From a virus, in the IMG/VR virus record IMGVR_UViG_3300044998_000101, positions 1 through 41,093 of that record: 41,093 nt of DNA; one strand, 5' to 3'. Made by a program: the position numbers and the translations under genes. The notes below the pieces were generated by a model. The model ran no database searches, was not told the origin of the DNA, and was given only the letters and a program-made list of their open reading frames with translations. Positions 1 to 41,093 of the stretch are shown here, piece after piece. Every line of letters begins with the position of its first letter. Position 1 is the first letter of the stretch.

Positions 1-127
1 CCATCAATCTCTTTACCAGCCACCAAGAAGAAGTTAGTCATACCGCCGGAAGCAATCTGCGCGGAAAGTCCCGCCTCTTCAAACAACGTACCCAATGCTA
101 GCGCGTCTTGAATGCTTGGCCGTAATG
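1..127. repeat. Left copy of 127-bp terminal direct repeat
   Basis: The first 127 bases are identical to bases 40967-41093. Both copies lie inside the tape measure gene, which continues in frame across the join. The length equals a common assembly k-mer, so this is best read as the overlap left when a circular (circularly permuted or circularised) genome was written linearly. It is not a biological terminal repeat. Confidence 0.95.
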
Positions 128-14955: not shown

Positions 14956-16539
14956 TTAAAACTCTTTTTTGCGTAAATCGCCGGTAATGGTTTTTCTTCT
15001 AATCCGTGTGCGCTGTACCGGCTGTTCAGCGGGTGCTTTTTCCTCTTCCATGCTAGCATGAATATGAGCTATCAGTAAATCATACAGCAAAATAATTCCA
15101 TAGCGTAGTGCGTCCGGACCGTGGTCATTGTCTTTAATTGGGATTGTCGAGTACGTCCCGTCGAGGTTCTTCTTGCGCTTGTACCCCATCATCTCGAGGT
15201 GCAACTGGTGACAGTTGCGGGTAAACATGATTCTGCCAGTGCGCAACAGGTTCTTGACCATCTTGATACCGTTGTTCACTTCGTACCGCGCGCCTTCTTT
15301 GTGCTTCTCCATCATCGGCGCACCGCGTCGTCGTCGGTCTGCAATCTCAGTAATGCCGTGGTAGTCAGGAATCCAACCCCGCACGTTTTCGGCAATACTC
15401 ATCCCGTATGTAGCCAGCTTTGATTCTATGGCTTGCCAGATCTCTTCTGTGTCATAGCCCACTAGGTATAGCTCGTCGAAAATAATCACACGGTCAAAGG
15501 TGGTAGGAACAAACGCAAACAGCACTACGTTTGGGTGCTTCTCCACGTTTCCAAAGTCCTCAAAAAGATAAATGTACCCCTGCTTGTTGTCGGTGGGTGT
15601 CCAGTCAATCATGTTCTCTTCTTCGCTGTACACGCTTCCGTAAATCACGCCCTCCAATCCCGGACGCCTACACAACCACTCAGCGTCCCACACTTCGGGG
15701 TCGAGCTTCCGGTGCTTGGTAATTGCGTCGTCCCAGCTGTAATACCCGTCTGCTTCCTCTATGCGGTCGGGCAATTGGCCTTTGAACTCGTCGAGTATCT
15801 TCTTGAGTTTCTTAGGGTCGGTCGGTAGCTTCTCGATCACTTCCCAAATACACCACTGGTACAGTTTTGTGTCCTCATCGTGCTTGGCTTCGTCAATAGC
15901 GCGTTGCATAACTCCGCTCGGGAACTTGCGCGTACTGGTAATAACGATCTTGCTTTCAATGCCATTCTTGCTCTGGGGCATGGAGAATGCTTGCTGGAGA
16001 ATGAACCACAACATCAGGTCGATCTCGTCCAAAAAGAGTAGTTGAGGGTGAGGTGAGTTCACGCCACTAACAGTACCCGTGACAATTTCCACCTTTGCGC
16101 CGTTGTCTAACGTGGTGCGTTTCATCGACTTTTCTTTTTTGTGGTGGGCGAATGGGAATCGGTCGCTAAAGTTCTGGAAGTACTCGTAACACCTCTGGGC
16201 TTGCGCTTGGATAGCACCTACCGTAGCAATCTCTGCCGGCAGGAAGTAGCTCATGATGGTGTCGAGAATCGCAAAGTCAATCGTCTTGCCACCAGAACGG
16301 TTAGCAAGTACGACAGCATTACGGAACTCGTTGAAAATATAATCAGCTACAAAGTCGAAGGGGGCGTTGTGGTCAGGGCAGATCTGTTTGCGTGGTATCT
16401 GTACGCCGAGGTTAAAAGCGATCCACTCCCACAGCAGGTCTTTATCCTTTTCCTCAACTGCCAGCCTCAGCGCTTCCAGCCGTGTTTTCTCCGGTATCCG
16501 TAGCTCCTCGCTCGGCTCGTAGTTTTTTTCGTTCGGCAT
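14956..16539 (-). CDS. Terminase large subunit
   Basis: A 527-residue packaging motor and nuclease. The ATPase half shows a Walker A-like ANRSGGKT (79-86), a Walker B LLFLDEID (167-174) and the coupling segment KIVITSTRKFPSGVM. The RNase H-like nuclease half shows FEDFGN (first acidic site), VIIFDELYLVG (second) and DNDHGPDALRYG (third). Length is normal. Its 5' end overlaps the small subunit gene by 86 bases, a larger overlap than elsewhere here. The C-terminus is basic. Confidence 0.93.
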   Translation of the reverse strand: MPNEKNYEPSEELRIPEKTRLEALRLAVEEKDKDLLWEWIAFNLGVQIPRKQICPDHNAPFDFVADYIFNEFRNAVVLANRSGGKTIDFAILDTIMSYFLPAEIATVGAIQAQAQRCYEYFQNFSDRFPFAHHKKEKSMKRTTLDNGAKVEIVTGTVSGVNSPHPQLLFLDEIDLMLWFILQQAFSMPQSKNGIESKIVITSTRKFPSGVMQRAIDEAKHDEDTKLYQWCIWEVIEKLPTDPKKLKKILDEFKGQLPDRIEEADGYYSWDDAITKHRKLDPEVWDAEWLCRRPGLEGVIYGSVYSEEENMIDWTPTDNKQGYIYLFEDFGNVEKHPNVVLFAFVPTTFDRVIIFDELYLVGYDTEEIWQAIESKLATYGMSIAENVRGWIPDYHGITEIADRRRRGAPMMEKHKEGARYEVNNGIKMVKNLLRTGRIMFTRNCHQLHLEMMGYKRKKNLDGTYSTIPIKDNDHGPDALRYGIILLYDLLIAHIHASMEEEKAPAEQPVQRTRIRRKTITGDLRKKEF

Positions 16540-17044
16540 ATTTCTGTAACATCCTCTCAGCAGCCAGTTCTTCTTCTTCGCTTTGTGGTGCGTCGTCGAA
16601 GTGGTGAGTGTTGTCGGTCTTTGGCATAAAGCGTTTGTCTCGTCGCTCTAATAACCACTTGGCCGTGTTCACGTCACCGGGAATAGGTGGGTCTTCAACT
16701 TCCACCAGCTTTCTGTCTCGGTCGAGCGCTTTTCTTTTTCTGGCCGGTGTTCCCACAATGGCCTTGTGTACGCTCACTAGAGCAGCAATGGTGGTAAAGT
16801 CCTCGGAAGCCTCAATTGTTTCACGGAACGTCTTTGATCGGTTCAGGTATCTGTGGAAGGTTTCATGACTAATGCCAGCGGTGCGGTAGGCCTGTTGTCG
16901 GGTCATGCCGTTTTGTAAGCCGTTAATCAGGCTGTGAAAGATAAATTCATCCAATGCGAGTACATTGCCGTCCTCTCGCTCGGTGTGGGCTTTCAGCTCT
17001 TCAAAGATTTTCGCTAGTAATTTGTTTGGTTGTTCGGTTGCCAT
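16454..17044 (-). CDS. Terminase small subunit
   Basis: A 196-residue protein directly upstream of and overlapping the large subunit. A helix-turn-helix is visible (about 35-75; GMTRQQAYRTAGISHETFHR), followed by a helical segment (TTIAALVSVHKAIVG), WLLERRDKRF and a charged coiled-coil tail. This is the arrangement of small terminases that recognise the packaging site and form a ring on DNA. The family is inferred from HTH plus context. Confidence 0.85.
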   Translation of the reverse strand: MATEQPNKLLAKIFEELKAHTEREDGNVLALDEFIFHSLINGLQNGMTRQQAYRTAGISHETFHRYLNRSKTFRETIEASEDFTTIAALVSVHKAIVGTPARKRKALDRDRKLVEVEDPPIPGDVNTAKWLLERRDKRFMPKTDNTHHFDDAPQSEEEELAAERMLQKYAERKKLRAERGATDTGENTAGSAEAGS

Positions 17045-17045
17045 A

Positions 17046-17300
17046 TTAAAAGTCTTCTAACGGTACGTTTTGTCCAGCCAGTGGGTGAGTGTAGTCTGGC
17101 AGGTACTCAATGTTACCGTTTTTTATAAACAAGTGACACACCTCGTCTCCTACTCTGCTCACAACGCTCGGGCTAACTGTCAGTGTTTCTTCGTCTAGTT
17201 GCCATCGGTCGTCAATGTAATGACCACAGCCACAAGCGGTACACCAAAATGCCCTATAACCCTTTGTGTCGCCTTGTGTTTCTAGTTTTCTAAACTTCAT
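17046..17300 (-). CDS. Small Cys/His protein, DUF6527-like
   Basis: An 84-residue protein. The layout FWCTACGCGHYID, then PSVVSRVGDEVCHLFIKNG, then IEYLPDYTHPLAGQNVPL is seen in small phage proteins of the DUF6527 type, often found next to terminase genes. The Cys and His residues suggest a metal site. Function is unknown. It lies one base upstream of the small terminase start. Confidence 0.7.
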   Translation of the reverse strand: MKFRKLETQGDTKGYRAFWCTACGCGHYIDDRWQLDEETLTVSPSVVSRVGDEVCHLFIKNGNIEYLPDYTHPLAGQNVPLEDF

Positions 17301-17331: not shown

Positions 17332-17571
17332 CTACCATTCTAACACTGCCTTCCATGTTTCTACGTCGCACTGGTCGCCAGCGCGTCCGGTTTCTATTGC
17401 GCGTTGTATCTCACCTTTGATCTGATCTTGGGTGTGAACGGGTATCAATTCCCAATGGTTGCTCAGGTATGTGCGTACCATTGTCGGCGCAGCTGTTCTC
17501 CGGCCGAGTGCATATCTAAAAGCAAAGAACATTATGTCCTCTGGTAGTGGCTCTAACGATTGGCGTATCAT
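17332..17571 (-). CDS. Small conserved phage protein
   Basis: A 79-residue protein reading ...FFAFRYALGRRTAAPTMV... and ending in ETWKAVLEW. Short proteins with an ALGRRT core followed by a helical segment and a terminal W are common in phages near packaging or nucleotide genes. No function is known. Its start overlaps the glycosyltransferase stop by four bases, so it belongs to the same operon. Confidence 0.7.
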   Translation of the reverse strand: MIRQSLEPLPEDIMFFAFRYALGRRTAAPTMVRTYLSNHWELIPVHTQDQIKGEIQRAIETGRAGDQCDVETWKAVLEW

Positions 17572-18407
17572 TTGCCTCCCATCATGGTTTTGCGCCAGTT
17601 GTTAATTGACTGCTGGCTATACAGTCTGAACGCGAGTTCCGAGTGTGGGTGTTGTCCGGCTTTCTTGTGGTATCTGAAAAGTCCGGGATACTTGCGCATT
17701 AAATACGCACAATCTTTGATCTTTGCCTGTTCTCTCTCTGGGTACGTTCCGCATCCGCCCTTTTCGTAATGCTTGGCGAGTGGGAACACAAACTTATTCA
17801 CCAATACTTGCCCGCGTCGGAGTAGGTTTTCGGCTGTGTACTGGTAGTCGTCCAGTGTGTGCAGGTGTTCGGTGTCGAAGCGTAAATCCCTCTGGCGCTG
17901 GATCAGTGTCATCTTGCCTACTACTAACCCCGAACGCATCCAATGTTTCTCTCTGAAGTATGGGTTGTCGAATGCTGAAAAGCCGGCGTAGCTTATGCCA
18001 TCGGTTTCGGCTCTCAGTATCATGTGCTGTGCAATGTCTAGTAGTTCGTGGACGGTTAGGTGGTTTTTGAATAGCTGGTAAATGTTTTTGTCGGTTCTGG
18101 CCGGTACAAAGTCTCGATCATGGAATCCCAATGGTAAGCCGGAAAAACCAGAGATGTTGTCGTCCATGTTGAAAAGCCACTCCCCCTCAGCCACAAGGTT
18201 GTCCACCATCCACTGTCGGGCGCTTGGCATTCCGAGTGGCGCGTTGCTCACAACAATCTTGCTTGGGTTGATGGTTGGGTTCATCAGGTAGCCGGCGCGC
18301 TCTTCTTCGTTGTGCAACACAATCACATAATCAACTCCCGCTTTTTCGAGCATGAGGTGGGTTTTGATCTGGTTCGGCCGGTTGTAACTTGGAATGGCTA
18401 TGCGCAT
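17568..18407 (-). CDS. Glycosyltransferase of the TET-associated (TAGT) type
   Basis: A 279-residue GT-A-like protein. The start MRIAIPSYNRPNQIKTHL is a nucleotide-sugar-binding strand/loop. LGMPSARQWMVDN and the acidic motif FNMDDNI (80-85, D82/D83) form the metal/UDP-sugar site. TLDDYQYT (D186/D187) is the second acidic site. This arrangement matches the glycosyltransferases that phages carry beside TET/JBP oxygenases and use to put a sugar on oxidised pyrimidines in DNA. Here the TET/JBP fusion lies 176 bases upstream in the same overlapping gene run, which supports that role. The sugar is unknown, and a protein or glycan target is not excluded. Confidence 0.85.
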   Translation of the reverse strand: MRIAIPSYNRPNQIKTHLMLEKAGVDYVIVLHNEEERAGYLMNPTINPSKIVVSNAPLGMPSARQWMVDNLVAEGEWLFNMDDNISGFSGLPLGFHDRDFVPARTDKNIYQLFKNHLTVHELLDIAQHMILRAETDGISYAGFSAFDNPYFREKHWMRSGLVVGKMTLIQRQRDLRFDTEHLHTLDDYQYTAENLLRRGQVLVNKFVFPLAKHYEKGGCGTYPEREQAKIKDCAYLMRKYPGLFRYHKKAGQHPHSELAFRLYSQQSINNWRKTMMGGK

Positions 18408-18586
18408 GGATACCCCATATCTTCAAGCTCTACCTTAATGTCGATCAGGTAGTTGTGTAATGCGTCCTCTTCTCGCCAGCTCAGTTTGTTTTGGTCGCCC
18501 TCGTACTTGGCTAGGTACTCTTGAATCGCTTGGTACACGTGTCGTGCGGTATTAACATCTGGTGCGGTTCGTATGCGTAAACTCAT
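18398..18586 (-). CDS. 62-aa protein between TET fusion and glycosyltransferase
   Basis: A short helical protein (ARHVYQAIQEYLAKYEGDQN, ending in LEDMGYPCA). It overlaps the TET fusion by four bases (ATGA) and the glycosyltransferase by ten, so all three are translationally coupled. No family is recognised. The position inside a DNA-modification module suggests an accessory subunit, but nothing in the sequence shows this. Confidence 0.65.
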   Translation of the reverse strand: MSLRIRTAPDVNTARHVYQAIQEYLAKYEGDQNKLSWREEDALHNYLIDIKVELEDMGYPCA

Positions 18587-19326
18587 TTTGCCATCCGTTT
18601 CTTTTCCCGTTCAAACTTCACGTTACGGATTCGCTCTACCTCTTCGCGCAATGGTAGGCAATCCCACATCTTGCGGAGTGAGTAGTACACGATAGTGAAT
18701 CGGTACGCATCGGGTGTCAGGAACTTAATTGGTGTAACGCCATGCAAAATCTGCTGGCCGTCGAAAATAGTCACAGAGTTGTTTGCAATGGCTAGCCCTA
18801 CATCATAGGCGGGAAGGGCAAGGTGTCCGCCGGCTGTTCCGCCTCGGATGGCGAGCATGGTGCTAAAGACTTCCTTAAAGTTTCCAGAGTCAAAGTGGTA
18901 CTTGAGGGGGTTGTTTTTGTTAACGATTCCCGAAGTAAACGGCGTTCCCGGAATGACATAATCCCGTAAAACTTTGTCGGTGGTTTGCGTGTGCGTGGCA
19001 TAAGTCTCTGGTGCGAAGTGCTGGTTGTCGGTAAATGCTAGTTCGATTGCTTCCTTTTCGTCGGCTGGACTGTTCAGGTTTACCCAAACGTCCTCAATCC
19101 CAAGCTCTGCGTACACGTCAATGCGGTGATTGCCCCCGAGTAACTGGCCTTCTTTGCCCCACTTTTCGCCGGTGTTCACTTGCAGGGGGTGACGTTGGCC
19201 TTGGCGCTCAATAATCTCTTTGAGCTGGTCGTGTTCGTCGGTAGTGATTTCCCTCGGGTTCTTGTCCCACTTAAAAAGATTCTTAATGCTGGTGTAGGTG
19301 CGCCCATCTTTAACAAATGTCTTCAT
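18583..19326 (-). CDS. ParB-like domain fused to TET/JBP-family 2-oxoglutarate/Fe(II) dioxygenase
   Basis: A 247-residue fusion. Residues 10-85 resemble a ParB/sulfiredoxin-fold domain: NPREI (23-27), LKEIIERQGQRHPLQV, and the GNHR box (65-68) followed by AELGIEDVWVNLN. Residues 120-225 carry the TET/JBP core: HFD (H144, D146) for iron, then GGTAGGHLALPAYDVGLAI, then FDGQQILHGV with the distal His195, and YRFTIVYYS with Arg209 for 2-oxoglutarate. TET/JBP enzymes oxidise the 5-methyl group of 5-methylcytosine or thymine in DNA. The ParB-like part may bind DNA or hydrolyse nucleotides. The gene is coupled to a 62-aa gene and a glycosyltransferase. Confidence 0.85.
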   Translation of the reverse strand: MKTFVKDGRTYTSIKNLFKWDKNPREITTDEHDQLKEIIERQGQRHPLQVNTGEKWGKEGQLLGGNHRIDVYAELGIEDVWVNLNSPADEKEAIELAFTDNQHFAPETYATHTQTTDKVLRDYVIPGTPFTSGIVNKNNPLKYHFDSGNFKEVFSTMLAIRGGTAGGHLALPAYDVGLAIANNSVTIFDGQQILHGVTPIKFLTPDAYRFTIVYYSLRKMWDCLPLREEVERIRNVKFEREKKRMAK

Positions 19327-19335
19327 GTCTGTCTC

Positions 19336-19767
19336 CTAGAATGGTGTGTCCTCTCCCTCACTTGCTGGTGGTGTCCAGTCGTCGGTTGGGTCGGGTTCTT
19401 GTTGGGGTGTGCTTGCGCCCGTGGTCGCTTTTTTACTTCGATGTGGAATAACGTCCTCGGCAATGATCTTGCTCGAGTATCTTTTTTCGCCGTCTTTTTC
19501 GTAGGTGGAATTGTCAATGCGTCCATACACAGTAACGGCTTGGCCTTGGGTCAGGTTCTTGCTCAACCACTCAGCGATTTTCCCGAACACAGTAATGTTG
19601 TGAAAGGTTGCCACGTCTTCGTAGCCACCCTCAGCTTGTTCGTTCTTTACGCTTCGGTTTGTTGCAATGGAAAAGTTCAACACAGCCACTTTGTTTGGTG
19701 TGTATCGTAACTCGGGGTTTCTGGCACAGTTGCCAACAAGGATCGCTTGATTTATTGAAAATGACAT
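19336..19767 (-). CDS. ssb: Single-stranded DNA-binding protein
   Basis: A 143-residue OB-fold SSB: AILVGNCARNPELRYTPN, VAVLNFSIATNRS, FHNITVFGKIAEWLSKNL, GQAVTVYGRIDNSTYEKDG. The linker is short and the acidic tail ends EGEDTPF, close to the DDIPF-type tip that recruits host repair and replication proteins. It coats single-stranded DNA in replication and recombination. It is the first gene after its own promoter and leads the DNA-modification and packaging genes. Confidence 0.95.
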   Translation of the reverse strand: MSFSINQAILVGNCARNPELRYTPNKVAVLNFSIATNRSVKNEQAEGGYEDVATFHNITVFGKIAEWLSKNLTQGQAVTVYGRIDNSTYEKDGEKRYSSKIIAEDVIPHRSKKATTGASTPQQEPDPTDDWTPPASEGEDTPF

Positions 19768-22894: not shown

Positions 22895-22930
22895 TAATCG
22901 CAACTACAAATGTACCCCTCAGGAGTCTCC

Positions 22931-23449
22931 ATGCCCGAGCAACGCCAATACCCCGTTCCATTTAGTACCGAGGTTGCACCCTATCACCCCGAAGTCACCC
23001 ATCACGTTATAGAACAAAACGAAAACCGCAAACACTGGCAGGAAAACGACACTAACCAGTCTCTTGAACAAATGATGCGCGATGAGTTTCAAGAGTACCT
23101 TGAAGCAATGGAAAAATGCCAACTTGGAGATGACCCCTTCTCGTTTGTTTCTGAGGCTGGCGATATGGGCTACCTTTACGTGAAGCGCCGTCGCTCCGGA
23201 ACTCCTCTGCCAATCGACATTGTGGACATGATGATTCAAGTCGAACGTGATTTGGCCTCGGTGAACATGACAATGGAGGAGTGCATCACCTTCAAAAACT
23301 GGCGCAATGATTACAAGTACGTCAGTATGGCAACCAATAACGGCTACCAACCAGATCAGGCAAGATCAATCATTAAAGAGTTTTGGTCGCATATGGGCGG
23401 TGATCTCGTTTTCTACTACGCCTACATGATGATGGCCGAAAAGCTCTAA
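22931..23449 (+). CDS. MazG-like nucleoside triphosphate pyrophosphohydrolase
   Basis: The only rightward gene, about 172 residues from the ATG at 22931, which has AGGAG six bases upstream; a longer frame from 22910 lacks such a site. It is all-helical. The acidic pattern MMRDEFQEYLEAMEK (E-x-x-E type), then SEAGDMGYLYVKRRR (E-x-x-D type), then MTMEECITFKNWRNDYKY, matches the metal-binding core and K-x3-ND end of MazG-like all-alpha NTP pyrophosphatases. Such enzymes remove unwanted nucleotides or lower the alarmone/NTP signals of the host. Its 3' end overlaps the convergent gene 23366-23695 by 84 bases. Confidence 0.8.
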   Translation: MPEQRQYPVPFSTEVAPYHPEVTHHVIEQNENRKHWQENDTNQSLEQMMRDEFQEYLEAMEKCQLGDDPFSFVSEAGDMGYLYVKRRRSGTPLPIDIVDMMIQVERDLASVNMTMEECITFKNWRNDYKYVSMATNNGYQPDQARSIIKEFWSHMGGDLVFYYAYMMMAEKL

Positions 23450-26444: not shown

Positions 26445-27601
26445 AAGCTTTCCGCCCCCTTCTCGATGTGCTTCACCAAATCAACCAACTTAACATGCAC
26501 CTCACTCAATAGGTCTTTGGCCTCTTCGCTTGTAACTTCTGGTTTTGGTAAATGCTTCAAGTACTCCGCCATTGCCAGCAACTTTTCTCGGTCTGGGGCT
26601 AGTTTGGCTTTGCGCTCTAGCTCTGCTTTTTTCTTGGCTTCCTCAGCCTCTTTGTGTTTTCGTTCGAGTTCGGCTTTTTCCAAGGCTTCGCGCTTCTCAC
26701 GTTCTGCCTTCAGTTTTGCTTCCTGCTCGGCTCTGGCCTTTTCCGCAACCTTGCGTTCTGCTTCGAGCTTAGTTTGTTGTTTGGCGCGTTCGATCTTCAG
26801 CTTTTCTTCAGCTTTGCGCTTTTCCTCGGCAGCTTTTTTCTCTCTGGCCTCAGCTTCTTTTTTCAGCTTTTCGTTCTCAATTCTGATCTGCTCTTGCTCG
26901 AGGTCGTACTTTTCTTTTTTGTTTTTCGCAGCCTCTAAAATGTGGCCGTACTCTAGCTCGTCGGTGTGCAGTGAGATTGGAGTGTGTACCCATCTAGCAA
27001 AAGGTGCTAACTCCATCATTCGGTTTCGGTACACCTCTTCTTTACGGGCGTTTTCGGCTCTTTCTTCTTCTGCCTTGCGCTCGGCTTCCTTTTGCGCTTC
27101 GTAGGCTTTGCGTGAGTTTTGGAGCAGTTTTTCAAACACCGCTTCATCCATATCGAGCAAGTTAAACACAGTCACATCCTCAACATAATGCCCTAGCATC
27201 TCGCGTCGGTCGTTCAGTCGGGTAAGTTTTCGGTTTTCCTCTGCCATCTCCGCAAACTTTTCTTGCTTCTCGAGGTGTTCTTCAACTGGCACAATCAATG
27301 CCTTGATAATATTTGCCATACCGTCGATAGCCTTACCCTCGCGCAATGATTGCTCTTTGAGTTCTTTGCGGGTTTTCTCGACGTTCACGCGGATCTCTTT
27401 GAGCTGTAAGCGTTTCTGTCTGGCTTGGCTCATCTCGCGTAACTGCTCTTCGTTGGTTACAACAATGCTTTTTGATTCCTCAGCAATCTGTCGTGCCTTC
27501 TGGAAGCTGTCGCTAAAACTCTCTATCAAGGTTTTCACTTTATTTTCCTGTAGTCCGCTCTGTTGAGCAATTACTACCAGTTCGTTCTGTGTGTTTGTCA
27601 T
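26441..27601 (-). CDS. Long coiled-coil protein of the recombination block
   Basis: A 386-residue protein, almost entirely charged helix. Residues 1-160 are a mixed helical region (LVVIAQQSGLQENKVKTLIE, ELKEQSLREGKAIDGMANII). Residues 160-345 are a Glu/Lys/Ala-rich coiled coil with many EAERK/AEEKRK repeats, interrupted near 195-225 by a non-repetitive segment (MMELAPFARWVHTPISLHTD). Similar proteins stand next to phage exonuclease/annealing genes and are thought to be accessory recombination factors. It overlaps the exonuclease gene by four bases. Compositional similarity to TolA-like proteins is not homology. Confidence 0.75.
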   Translation of the reverse strand: MTNTQNELVVIAQQSGLQENKVKTLIESFSDSFQKARQIAEESKSIVVTNEEQLREMSQARQKRLQLKEIRVNVEKTRKELKEQSLREGKAIDGMANIIKALIVPVEEHLEKQEKFAEMAEENRKLTRLNDRREMLGHYVEDVTVFNLLDMDEAVFEKLLQNSRKAYEAQKEAERKAEEERAENARKEEVYRNRMMELAPFARWVHTPISLHTDELEYGHILEAAKNKKEKYDLEQEQIRIENEKLKKEAEAREKKAAEEKRKAEEKLKIERAKQQTKLEAERKVAEKARAEQEAKLKAEREKREALEKAELERKHKEAEEAKKKAELERKAKLAPDREKLLAMAEYLKHLPKPEVTSEEAKDLLSEVHVKLVDLVKHIEKGAESL

Positions 27602-28188
27602 TGTAGTTTCTCCAAAATAGTTTCTAACATTGCTACGCCTTGCACTAAGCCAGCTCTCAGTTTGTTGATGTCTGCCTCGTTGCGCGTAACTCTTTGAATA
27701 ATCGTGGTGCGCTTAAAGTTCTCGTTGTACACCACGTAGTCCGCCCATTGTCTGCCGGACACCAACATTTGCATTTGCATTTGCCAGTAGTGAGCCGGAT
27801 CAATCTTCATCTCGTACATGTACCGGGCAAACTTGGCATCATTCATGCACTTAATCTCAACCAACCCATCCTCTGCAATCATGCCGTCTGGTGAACAGCC
27901 GATCTTCTCGTCCATCTCAATGAAGGCAATCTCAGTCACTACGTTGCCGGTTTCCAGCTCGTAGTTGTTGCGGGCAATCATCTCTAGGGCGTGTCCGCGT
28001 TCGATGTCTTCATTGGTGTACTGCTCTTTCAATTTGCCGGTCATTGTCTCGGCGACCTTTTCAAACACCAGTGTTTCCAGTCCTTTGCCATTGGTTGCAA
28101 TGGCTTGGGCTGTCGAGGCGGTGAACTTGCCGAGTCGCAATCTCAACCACTCCTCTGTTCCTTGTTGGATGTTAGTGTGCAATTTCAT
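27598..28188 (-). CDS. YqaJ/lambda Exo-type 5'-3' exonuclease
   Basis: A 196-residue PD-(D/E)XK nuclease: QQGTEEWLRLRLGKFTAS, NEDIERGHALEMIARNNYEL, IGCSPDGMI (catalytic Asp), GLVEIKCM (E-x-K), YWQMQMQMLVSG (QMQ motif of lambda Exo/YqaJ). It degrades one strand from a DNA end and hands single strands to the annealing protein encoded just upstream, whose frame overlaps it by 17 bases. Length is typical. Confidence 0.93.
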   Translation of the reverse strand: MKLHTNIQQGTEEWLRLRLGKFTASTAQAIATNGKGLETLVFEKVAETMTGKLKEQYTNEDIERGHALEMIARNNYELETGNVVTEIAFIEMDEKIGCSPDGMIAEDGLVEIKCMNDAKFARYMYEMKIDPAHYWQMQMQMLVSGRQWADYVVYNENFKRTTIIQRVTRNEADINKLRAGLVQGVAMLETILEKLQ

Positions 28189-28915
28189 CGAGTTCTCGCT
28201 TTCTCTGGGTGTACATCACCTCAATGGCTTTGTGGTATTTGTCGTCGAGTGTTGAGCGTAACCCGTTGGCAATCTTCAACAACTCTTCTTTTGATTGTGC
28301 GCCCGTCAGTCGCACTTGGTCGGCTGGCTCTAATGCGGTGAAGTCGTCTCTTACCGCTTCGCCTTCAACCACTTCAATCTGTGAGTATTCGCCCTCGGCG
28401 TACACATCGTTGCAGATTCCCCACTCATTGGCGCACTTCTTCAATGCGTCGGTGGTCGCAGCTTTGTAGTCGTCCGCGAGGTCTACTGGTTGGTCGGTTG
28501 GGACTTTTACCGGCTTGTTCCAGCGGTTCATTACCGTGTTGCCTTTTTCATCCTTTTTGTCCTCAGTAATAAACTTAATCTCAGCACCACCGAATTGCTC
28601 TTTAGTGATCGAGAATGTAGGGTTGAAATGCACCACTAAGCGACCATGCACCCAGAGTTGGTTTCCCTCTCGGCCTTTGTCCACAATCACGAAGTCCCAC
28701 ATGTGTCCAAAAATCTCATTTAATTTTTGTTTAATGTAGTGACCCTTCACGTAGGTGAACTCATTACCACCGCGTCCTTTTCGTTTGTACAAAAACTCTG
28801 GCGGGGTTGGTTTTGAAATTACAGAAATCTGTTTGGGTGAAAGTATTGATTTACCAACCGTTAGGTTTTCTGGTAAAACCCTAATGATGGCTTTTTTGTC
28901 TGCCTTAACGGGCAT
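28172..28915 (-). CDS. Rad52/22-family single-strand annealing protein
   Basis: A 247-residue protein. The start at 28915 is chosen because GGAGG lies five bases upstream; an ATG further up covers that site. Core features of Rad52/22-type annealing proteins are TPPEFLYKRKGRGGNEFTYV, KGHYIKQKLNEIFGHMWDF, NQLWVHGRLVVHF and DDYKAATTDALKKCANEWGI. The C-terminal third (about 185-247) is acidic then helical. It pairs with the YqaJ exonuclease as a phage recombinase system. Confidence 0.9.
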   Translation of the reverse strand: MPVKADKKAIIRVLPENLTVGKSILSPKQISVISKPTPPEFLYKRKGRGGNEFTYVKGHYIKQKLNEIFGHMWDFVIVDKGREGNQLWVHGRLVVHFNPTFSITKEQFGGAEIKFITEDKKDEKGNTVMNRWNKPVKVPTDQPVDLADDYKAATTDALKKCANEWGICNDVYAEGEYSQIEVVEGEAVRDDFTALEPADQVRLTGAQSKEELLKIANGLRSTLDDKYHKAIEVMYTQRKRELDEIAH

Positions 28916-28948
28916 ATGATCCTCCATTTTTATTTTTATATTATGTTT

Positions 28949-39703: not shown

Positions 39704-41093
39704 TATGCCGTCCTTAGTGCGTATGATAGGTCGCGCAAGGCGAAAGCCACGTCTACATCACTGTAAATGTGGTTTGTCTGTTGAATCGTCTTACCGCCCA
39801 TGCCTTGTAATTCTGGGTTGCTATACACGTCTGATCCTCGTGGTAGGTTCACTAATTCAGGACCGCGCTCGCCCACAATAGCAGGACCACCGCGGAAGTT
39901 TCGCGCACCTTCAGCCAGCATCGGAATCTCATTGACCGTGGTGTAGCCCGGAATCTTGTCTCCCACGCTGTTTGCTCCGCGGATCAACATGTTAATACCG
40001 CCGATCACGTCGTTAATGCGTCGCTTAATCTCTCCCACAATCGAGTTCAAAATGCCGAACACTAACGACTTGATGCCGTTCCACACGTCGCCCCAAGTGA
40101 GGCCGAGTGCGTTCAGTCCAGCAGTCATCAACTTAAATACGTTCTCAATTGGCTTCCAAAATGTATTGCTCAAAAACCCAACAAAAGCCGTAAGTAAAGG
40201 AATGATAATCAGGTTAAATATGTTCGTAAAAATCTGGCCGAGCGTTGTGAGGACAGCCCCAATGAACCCGAAAATGCTTTGCAACACCGGCCACACAGTC
40301 CCCTGCATAAAGCCAAGGAAGCCGTTTACAATCCCTTGAATGTTCATGAAGTTGTTTTGCCACGCCAAAAACAGAGCTGCAACCGCAGCTGCAACGAGTA
40401 GGAAAATACCAATCACCGGCAACACCGAGATGGTCGCCGTCACTCCAATAGCGGTCAGTAGTCCGTTAATTCCAAGTAGTACCGTTGCTAAAAGTCCAGC
40501 ACCAGCCACAATCGCCAGAATCGCAGCCACTACTGTTGGGTGTTGAGCTGCAAATGTGGCGAATGCGTCCACTGCCGGTAGCACCGCGTCCATAATCATG
40601 TTGAGCGCCGGAAGCAAAGCGTTTCCAATCGTGATCGCCGTAGCGTTCATAATGTTCTTGAACTTGTCCATTTGAGCAGCAGCCGTGTTGTTCTTGACGT
40701 TAAACTCATTGATGAGTGACGTTCCTTTTGCGAACTCCGCATTGGCCGTACTCTGCAACAGTCTAAACCGATCCACTCCACCGCCCAAAGCGCCCACTAC
40801 CTTAATTGTTTCCTGTGTGCCGATCTTGAGGGTGTCCAATGTGTTGGCCAATTCCACAGCGTCCATGCCTTTGAGTGATTCTGAAAACTTAATCGCAAAC
40901 TCGGTCGGGTCAGTACTCAACAGCTCTTGTGCTTTTTTGGTGGTCATTCCCATGAGAGCTGCAAAGCCATCAATCTCTTTACCAGCCACCAAGAAGAAGT
41001 TAGTCATACCGCCGGAAGCAATCTGCGCGGAAAGTCCCGCCTCTTCAAACAACGTACCCAATGCTAGCGCGTCTTGAATGCTTGGCCGTAATG
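39703..41093 (-). CDS. Tail tape measure protein, C-terminal part (continues at left end)
   Basis: This is the remainder of the tape measure protein that begins at 737, including the 127-base duplicate at its 5' end. It runs LFEEAGLSAQIASGGMTNFF, QLLSTDPTEFAIK-type core and KVVGALGGGVDRFRLL, followed by hydrophobic helical stretches (about residues 350-500 of the whole: TVVAAILAIVAGAGLLATVL, ISVLPVIGIFLLVAAAVAAL, FLGFMQGTVWPVLQSIFGFI). It ends in a region with GPAIVGERGPELVNLP. The hydrophobic segments are expected in tape measure proteins that insert into the host membrane at DNA entry. Confidence 0.93.
   Translation of the reverse strand, partial: LRPSIQDALALGTLFEEAGLSAQIASGGMTNFFLVAGKEIDGFAALMGMTTKKAQELLSTDPTEFAIKFSESLKGMDAVELANTLDTLKIGTQETIKVVGALGGGVDRFRLLQSTANAEFAKGTSLINEFNVKNNTAAAQMDKFKNIMNATAITIGNALLPALNMIMDAVLPAVDAFATFAAQHPTVVAAILAIVAGAGLLATVLLGINGLLTAIGVTATISVLPVIGIFLLVAAAVAALFLAWQNNFMNIQGIVNGFLGFMQGTVWPVLQSIFGFIGAVLTTLGQIFTNIFNLIIIPLLTAFVGFLSNTFWKPIENVFKLMTAGLNALGLTWGDVWNGIKSLVFGILNSIVGEIKRRINDVIGGINMLIRGANSVGDKIPGYTTVNEIPMLAEGARNFRGGPAIVGERGPELVNLPRGSDVYSNPELQGMGGKTIQQTNHIYSDVDVAFALRDLSYALRTA
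40967..41093. repeat. Right copy of 127-bp terminal direct repeat
   Basis: Identical to bases 1-127; see the left copy. Removing one copy leaves a 40,966-bp circle in which the tape measure gene is intact. Confidence 0.95.

What the first reader, a model, noticed from the sequence alone, without database searches (positions are those of the whole stretch)
17568..19326. Three-gene DNA hypermodification module with no cytosine methyltransferase: possible base-J-like pathway
A TET/JBP oxygenase, a 62-aa protein and a TAGT-type glycosyltransferase overlap each other's frames. Known phage TET systems start from 5-methylcytosine and need a C5 methyltransferase. I find no such enzyme in the 41-kb genome. 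JBP enzymes oxidise thymine directly to 5-hydroxymethyluracil, which a glycosyltransferase turns into base J. This module has exactly the parts for that route; host-made 5mC is the alternative.
Basis: partly seen in the sequence, partly recalled or inferred. Interest (0 to 1): 0.85.

Follow-up and report, generated by a model that had tools for sequence, protein, structure and literature searches.

The report
Phage ParB-TET-glycosyltransferase DNA modification module
This bacterial virus carries a small gene cassette that probably oxidises the methyl group of thymine in its own DNA and hangs a sugar on it, much as trypanosomes make base J; such cassettes turn out to be common in phages and to lack a cytosine methyltransferase as a rule, and this copy is odd because its targeting gene and oxygenase gene have been fused by a deletion.

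Summary
In detail: a TET/JBP oxygenase, a 62-aa ORF and a TAGT glycosyltransferase overlap in one operon, and the 41-kb genome (127-bp terminal repeat, so probably complete) has no C5-methyltransferase. Relatives encode ParB as a separate gene, usually just upstream of TET; here an in-frame loss fused the two and removed the conserved TET N-terminal subdomain. The missing methyltransferase is the rule in this clade: 2 of 48 records carry one, against 47 of 49 in a contrast clade. Cultured and uncultured members of the window's clade carry TET beside amino acid:DNA transferase and P-loop kinase genes, thymidine-hypermodification families expected to act on 5-hydroxymethyluracil. Thymine is therefore the likeliest substrate and a base-J-like product plausible, but neither is shown. 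The nearest relative (about 70% identical) does have a C5-methyltransferase, host 5mC is not excluded, and the truncation makes activity of this enzyme uncertain. ParB-Tet thymidine hypermodification was already proposed for Rhodococcus phage Tonitrus (2025). Verdict: new variant of a known, predicted kind.

The parts
19018..19326 (-). ParB/Srx-like (ParB-CTPase fold) N-terminal half of the fused gene, residues 1-103
   Evidence: phrog_723 3e-15, residues 10-102; 36-38% identity over 105 aa to separate ParB genes next to TET in L003/L004; model pLDDT mostly above 90 there, Foldseek hits are ParB structures with bound CTP analogue or CDP
18583..19017 (-). TET/JBP 2OG-Fe oxygenase core, residues 104-247: H144-x-D146, H195, R209; N-terminal subdomain missing
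   Evidence: PF12851 profile positions 50-162 of 164; 35 of 35 columns invariant in relatives are kept; no copy of the missing N-terminal part elsewhere in the window
18398..18586 (-). 62-aa ORF, overlaps TET by 4 bp and TAGT by 10 bp; role unknown
   Evidence: no useful family hit
17568..18407 (-). TAGT, TET-associated glycosyltransferase; conserved R10, D82-D83, D187-Y188 and G217-G218 present
   Evidence: PF20691 2.6e-8, over its cut-off; phrog_842 'beta-glucosyl-HMC-alpha-glucosyltransferase' 1.2e-10; 29-row alignment A3
17332..17571 (-). 79-aa ORF, overlaps TAGT by 4 bp; same operon, function unknown
   Evidence: phrog_11947 3.4e-13
17046..17300 (-). 84-aa DUF6527 protein between module and terminase; membership in the module not shown
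   Evidence: PF20137 2.2e-7

Best explanation
A phage in-situ DNA hypermodification cassette. The TET/JBP oxygenase, steered to DNA by its ParB-fold part, hydroxylates a C5-methyl already present in replicated phage DNA, most likely that of thymine, giving 5-hydroxymethyluracil; TAGT then adds a sugar to the new hydroxyl, giving a base-J-like glycosyl-5hmU that would protect the DNA from host nucleases before packaging (the cassette lies next to the terminase genes). Shown: the genes, their overlaps, intact Fe/2OG and glycosyltransferase motifs, absence of a C5-MTase in a probably complete genome, and clade-wide linkage of ParB, TET and a tailoring enzyme. Inferred: thymine as substrate, the sugar step on DNA, ParB as the targeting part, the anti-restriction role, and that the fused, N-terminally truncated TET is active.
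For: C5-MTase PF00145 in 2 of 48 records of this TET clade against 47 of 49 in the contrast clade (Fisher p about 1e-22, rows not independent). No PF00145 in the window, in six other records with 123-127-bp end repeats or in seven complete actinophage genomes, which also lack PF00303 thymidylate-synthase-type enzymes. In the same 55-row tree clade (SH-aLRT 99) TET lies near ADDT PF18724 and P-loop kinases: MossRose, Tonitrus, Kozie, and ADDT in the uncultured L017 and L018; PMC11955845 reads the Tonitrus set as thymidine hypermodification. The positions aligned by motif with TET2 N1387/H1904 are N/L (one N/I) throughout this clade and D/D (one D/G) in the C5-MTase clade. TAGT in 28/48 records, ParB-like ORF on 48/56 loci.
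Against: The closest relatives, L003/L004 (69-72% identity over the core, L003 sister at SH-aLRT 93), carry a C5-MTase in the same cassette. The fused protein lacks the N-terminal subdomain, whose R77, S85, G89, P92 and C101 are invariant in 46 relatives, and has changed faster than L003 (17 against 3 unique changes, p 0.003). Three bacterial genomes with TET prophages all encode a C5-MTase, so host-made 5mC is not excluded. TAGT is also found on 9/49 C5-MTase-clade contigs. No chemistry is known.
Confidence: 0.55

Rival explanations
1. The same cassette acts on 5-methylcytosine made by the host (or by a co-infecting element), giving glycosylated 5hmC at host methylation sites.
For: The nearest relatives L003/L004 have a C5-MTase between two ParB genes in the cassette. 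Hosts of three related prophages encode C5-MTases. Phage TETs working with a C5-MTase and glycosyltransferases on cytosine are the characterised case, as told in PMC12730594.
Against: The 5hmU-type enzymes ADDT and kinase are in the same clade; the 5mC-linked clade differs at the two substrate-contact positions, and L003 itself has the N/L signature; M. smegmatis, host of many related phages, has no clearly established 5mC (PMC4938668, which itself asks for re-examination).
Confidence: 0.2
2. A decaying or repurposed cassette: a deletion in an L003-like ancestor joined ParB to the TET core, removing the ParB C-terminus and the TET N-terminal subdomain (and, if the upstream ParB was the donor, the C5-MTase too), leaving an inactive or non-catalytic TET half.
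For: Window ParB half is closest to L003/L004 ParBs and the TET half closest to L003 TET; the junction falls inside both parent genes; the L003 model aligns with TET2 over its whole length including the lost part (Z 21); the TET half of the fusion was modelled with low confidence; faster change.
Against: All 35 invariant core residues are kept although 17 lineage-specific changes occurred (probability 0.006 by chance); frame intact; TAGT motifs intact; an almost identical contig L002 (2 differences in 16.4 kb) has the same fusion. The low model confidence came from an alignment with only six other TET rows, so it is not a fair comparison with the 46-row model.
Confidence: 0.2
3. TAGT acts on protein or wall glycans, or the cassette is not about DNA at all.
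For: Glycosyltransferase families are broad; no solved TAGT relative was found by sequence.
Against: A TAGT-cluster gene lies near TET in 33 loci, mostly adjacent, and that slot is taken elsewhere by other hydroxyl-tailoring enzymes: ADDT, kinase, FkbM methyltransferase.
Confidence: 0.05

Closest known systems
ParB-TET-ADDT-5hmU kinase thymidine-hypermodification cassettes of actinophages (Tonitrus, MossRose; Kozie without an annotated ParB in the stretch shown; PMC11955845)
   Same: Same TET clade, ParB gene upstream of TET, at the genome left end and in most cases just before the terminase, no C5-MTase and no PF00303 enzyme in the complete genomes
   Different: Tailoring by amino acid:DNA transferase and kinase instead of TAGT; ParB and TET are separate, full-length genes
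Arthrobacter phage Altadena ParB-TET-TAGT-PIG-L cassette
   Same: ParB, TET of the same clade, then TAGT (PF20691 3.5e-16), no C5-MTase
   Different: Separate ParB and full-length TET; extra PIG-L deacetylase suggesting an amino sugar; N/I instead of N/L
C5-MTase-linked phage TET clade (Methylophilales phage Melnitz and viral contigs)
   Same: TET/JBP oxygenase, sometimes TAGT (9/49)
   Different: C5-MTase on 47/49 contigs, D/D instead of N/L at the two substrate positions, ParB rare (7/71 loci); separate tree clade
Kinetoplastid base J pathway (JBP plus glucosyltransferase)
   Same: Two-step in-situ logic: hydroxylate thymine in DNA, then glycosylate
   Different: Eukaryotic, not compared by sequence here; product not measured here; the comparison rests on general knowledge and PMC12730594

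Membership tests
TET/JBP 2OG-Fe dioxygenase (PF12851) | HxD...H iron triad and 2OG arginine in the catalytic core | tested here: met
   H144, D146, H195, R209; PF12851 over its cut-off
TET/JBP 2OG-Fe dioxygenase (PF12851) | Complete domain including the N-terminal subdomain | tested here: not met
   Only profile positions 50-162 matched; N-terminal HMM finds nothing in the window. The protein is therefore filed as a truncated, fused relative of the family
TET/JBP 2OG-Fe dioxygenase (PF12851) | Oxidation of a 5-methylpyrimidine in DNA | not testable with these tools
   needs an enzyme assay
TAGT glycosyltransferase (PF20691) | Family profile over gathering cut-off, acidic nucleotide-sugar motif, neighbourhood with TET | tested here: met
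   34.5 bits against 27.5, D82-D83 and D187 conserved, one short ORF away from TET
ParB-CTPase fold | ParB/Srx fold with the GGN-x-R motif | tested here: met
   phrog_723, alignment A4, Foldseek to ParB structures; NTP binding not tested
Base J pathway | Thymine as substrate | tested here: inconclusive
   Indirect support from genome context and clade; nearest relative has a C5-MTase
Base J pathway | beta-D-glucosyl-hydroxymethyluracil product | not testable with these tools
   needs LC-MS
C5-MTase-dependent phage TET system (5mC to glycosyl-5hmC) | Phage-encoded C5-MTase | tested here: not met
   No PF00145 in the window
Thymidine hypermodification of the ADDT/5hmU-kinase type | ADDT gene | tested here: inconclusive
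   No ADDT in the near-identical 17.5-kb record G001 and none among the window ORFs scanned; the whole window was not searched with PF18724

The most novel reading that the evidence does not exclude
A minimal phage base-J-type pathway in which a single ParB-TET fusion, lacking the N-terminal subdomain present in the relatives examined, finds and hydroxylates thymine in DNA, with a ParB NTP-switch domain doing the DNA targeting, and a TAGT completes glycosyl-5hmU.
Probability: 0.3. Interest if true: 0.72.

Novelty: new variant of a known kind. Interest (0 to 1): 0.52.

Why it matters
If right, oxidation of thymine in place, the first step of base J, is a widespread phage strategy, separable by gene content and by two active-site positions from the 5mC-based phage TETs. 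That makes a direct test possible on cultured phages. Enzymes that hydroxylate thymine in DNA would also be useful tools for DNA labelling and sequencing. The ParB fusion suggests that ParB-fold partners, present almost everywhere in this clade, are working parts of the oxygenase system rather than neighbours by chance.

Tried and rejected
Hidden C5-MTase in the window: rejected by PF00145 search in six frames and a motif scan. Incomplete genome as the reason: unlikely, 127-bp terminal repeat. Split gene, with the TET N-terminus elsewhere: not found. The 62-aa ORF as a missing ParB or TET piece: no hit to either HMM. tblastn of the TAGT against 50,697 phage records: no match at that sensitivity, and its direct IMG/VR search found only the near-identical contig; relatives came through TET neighbourhoods. 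Using host genomes to exclude host 5mC failed: all three had a C5-MTase. Sequence search of TAGT against solved structures: one chance-level hit. A first fusion alignment put ParB rows on the TET half and was replaced. The model of the fusion's TET half is low confidence and is not used alone as evidence of misfolding. Iyer 2013, Burke 2021 and Lee 2022 are not in the held library, so what they say is known only second-hand or from memory.

Full report
1. What is there. On the minus strand the order is SSB (19336-19767), ParB-TET (18583-19326), a 62-aa ORF (18398-18586), TAGT (17568-18407), a 79-aa ORF (17332-17571), a DUF6527 protein (17046-17300), TerS (16454-17044) and TerL (14956-16539). 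PF12851 (Tet_JBP) and PF20691 (TAGT) both pass their curated cut-offs. The record ends in a 127-bp direct repeat, the usual mark of a circular assembly, and a tape-measure frame runs off the end; the genome is therefore probably complete at about 40,966 bp. No PF00145 C5-methyltransferase is found in six frames.

2. Only residues 103-216 match Tet_JBP, and only profile positions 50-162 of 164. Residues 10-102 match ParB-like families (phrog_723, 3e-15). The N-terminal half models with high confidence and its best structural matches are ParB proteins with a bound CTP analogue or CDP. A search of IMG/VR gave 57 loci; apart from the near-identical contig L002, complete relatives are about 266-331 aa and have a different N-terminal part, and 48 of 56 loci have a separate ParB-like gene, usually immediately upstream of TET. 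The window ParB half is closest to the ParB genes of L003/L004 (36-38% over 105 aa) and its TET half is closest to L003 TET (72% over 132 columns, sister at SH-aLRT 93). The alignment places the junction at residue 103/104, inside both parent genes. The simplest history is an in-frame loss joining ParB to the TET core. If the donor was the upstream of the two ParB genes in an L003-like ancestor, the same event would also have removed a C5-MTase; this is conjecture, since the two ParBs score about equally.

3. Is the truncated oxygenase still working? In 46 relatives R77, S85, G89, P92, C101 and Y128 (L003 numbering) are invariant and lie in the lost part. The L003 model (pLDDT 92.5) aligns over residues 1-267 with human TET2 from residue 1175 on (Z 21), and also with NgTET1 and CMD1, so the lost part belongs to the conserved TET fold. 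No piece of it is elsewhere in the window. Against plain decay, all 35 columns of the core that are invariant among relatives are kept, although 17 changes are unique to the window against 3 to L003; with 17 changes spread at random over 141 columns the chance of missing all 35 is 0.006. The fusion may be younger than many of these changes. L002, with 2 differences in 16.4 kb, has the same fusion, so a one-off assembly error is unlikely, though L002 may come from a related sample.

4. Substrate. Across records holding this TET clade PF00145 occurs in 2 of 48, and both are the L003/L004 lineage. In a contrast clade seeded with Methylophilales phage Melnitz-2 it occurs in 47 of 49, mostly on contigs under 15 kb. 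Rows are related, so the Fisher p of about 1e-22 describes the contrast and is not a count of independent events. Six further records of the window's clade with 123-127-bp end repeats (G006, G015, G016, G030, G042, G048) lack PF00145, as do seven complete actinophage genomes (Nigel, MossRose, Ottawa, Cinna, Tonitrus, Kozie, Altadena), none of which has a PF00303 enzyme either. In MossRose, Tonitrus and Kozie ADDT (PF18724, amino acid:DNA transferase) and a Ploopntkinase3 kinase follow TET; in the uncultured L017 and L018, much closer to the window, ADDT also lies by TET, and the L017 protein also matches aGPT-Pplase3, 'alpha-glutamyl/putrescinyl thymine pyrophosphorylase'. By established knowledge these families work on 5-hydroxymethyluracil in DNA, and the Tonitrus authors read their ParB, Tet-like, aGPT-Pplase2 and 5-hmU kinase genes as a possible thymidine hypermodification system (PMC11955845). 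This makes thymine the probable substrate of the clade.

5. Active-site signature. Aligning by the HxD and R motifs, the positions of TET2 N1387 and H1904 (5mC contacts, from memory of the TET2-DNA structure) are N and L in the sampled members of the window's clade (one I, in Altadena), D and D in the Melnitz clade (one G), and D or N with R in a third group. The split matches the tree, in which the window's 55-row clade and the other 20 rows are separated at SH-aLRT 99 (few columns, long branches noted by the program). Asn is also found in TET2, so the signature supports a difference in substrate but does not by itself prove thymine.

6. Limits. The nearest relative has a C5-MTase in its cassette; the three bacterial genomes with TET prophages have C5-MTases, so host-made 5mC remains possible; M. 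smegmatis has no clearly established 5mC but the question is described as open (PMC4938668). TAGT is on 28 of 48 records here and on 9 of 49 of the C5-MTase-linked clade, so TAGT does not tell thymine from cytosine. Where TAGT is absent, the slot next to TET holds FkbM methyltransferases, P-loop kinases, unassigned genes or ADDT, which fits a pathway in which TET makes a hydroxyl and a second enzyme decorates it.

7. Comparison and verdict. The kind is known: Pfam names TAGT as TET-associated, and ParB-Tet thymidine hypermodification has been proposed in print. A 2025 survey of ParB-fold fusions, in the passages read, lists phage fusions to methyltransferases and DUFs and names no TET fusion (PMC12704722); only part of that paper was read. 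What is added here is the fusion with loss of the TET N-terminal subdomain, the clade-level contrast in C5-MTase linkage, and the matching residue signature. The module is a new variant of a known kind; thymine oxidation is probable, base J proper is unproven.

Noticed in passing
window 1-127 and 40967-41093: 127-bp direct terminal repeat; a tape-measure gene runs off the end, so the record is a circular, probably complete genome.
   Followed up: yes
L017:79-3872: ParB, TET, a class II glutamine-amidotransferase-like ORF, an acetyltransferase-like ORF, ADDT/aGPT-Pplase3 and a P-loop kinase in a row: an apparently richer thymine-tailoring operon (the amidotransferase and acetyltransferase readings are by eye).
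   Followed up: partly
L003:1158-4741: ParB, C5-MTase, ParB, TET, then a Fic-domain gene: the one lineage of this clade with a C5-MTase.
   Followed up: partly
L008:3982-4719 and the five other loci of cluster 9: FkbM-type methyltransferases sit next to TET in six loci without TAGT there, suggesting O-methylated hydroxymethyl bases.
   Followed up: no
L103:5478-6068: Phage Altadena has a PIG-L de-N-acetylase after TAGT, hinting at a GlcNAc then glucosamine decoration.
   Followed up: no
window 28172-28927 and 27598-28188: Rad52-like annealing protein beside a YqaJ exonuclease: a phage recombination pair.
   Followed up: no
window 22910-23449 (+): 179-aa ORF on the opposite strand to its neighbours, without family hits.
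   Followed up: no
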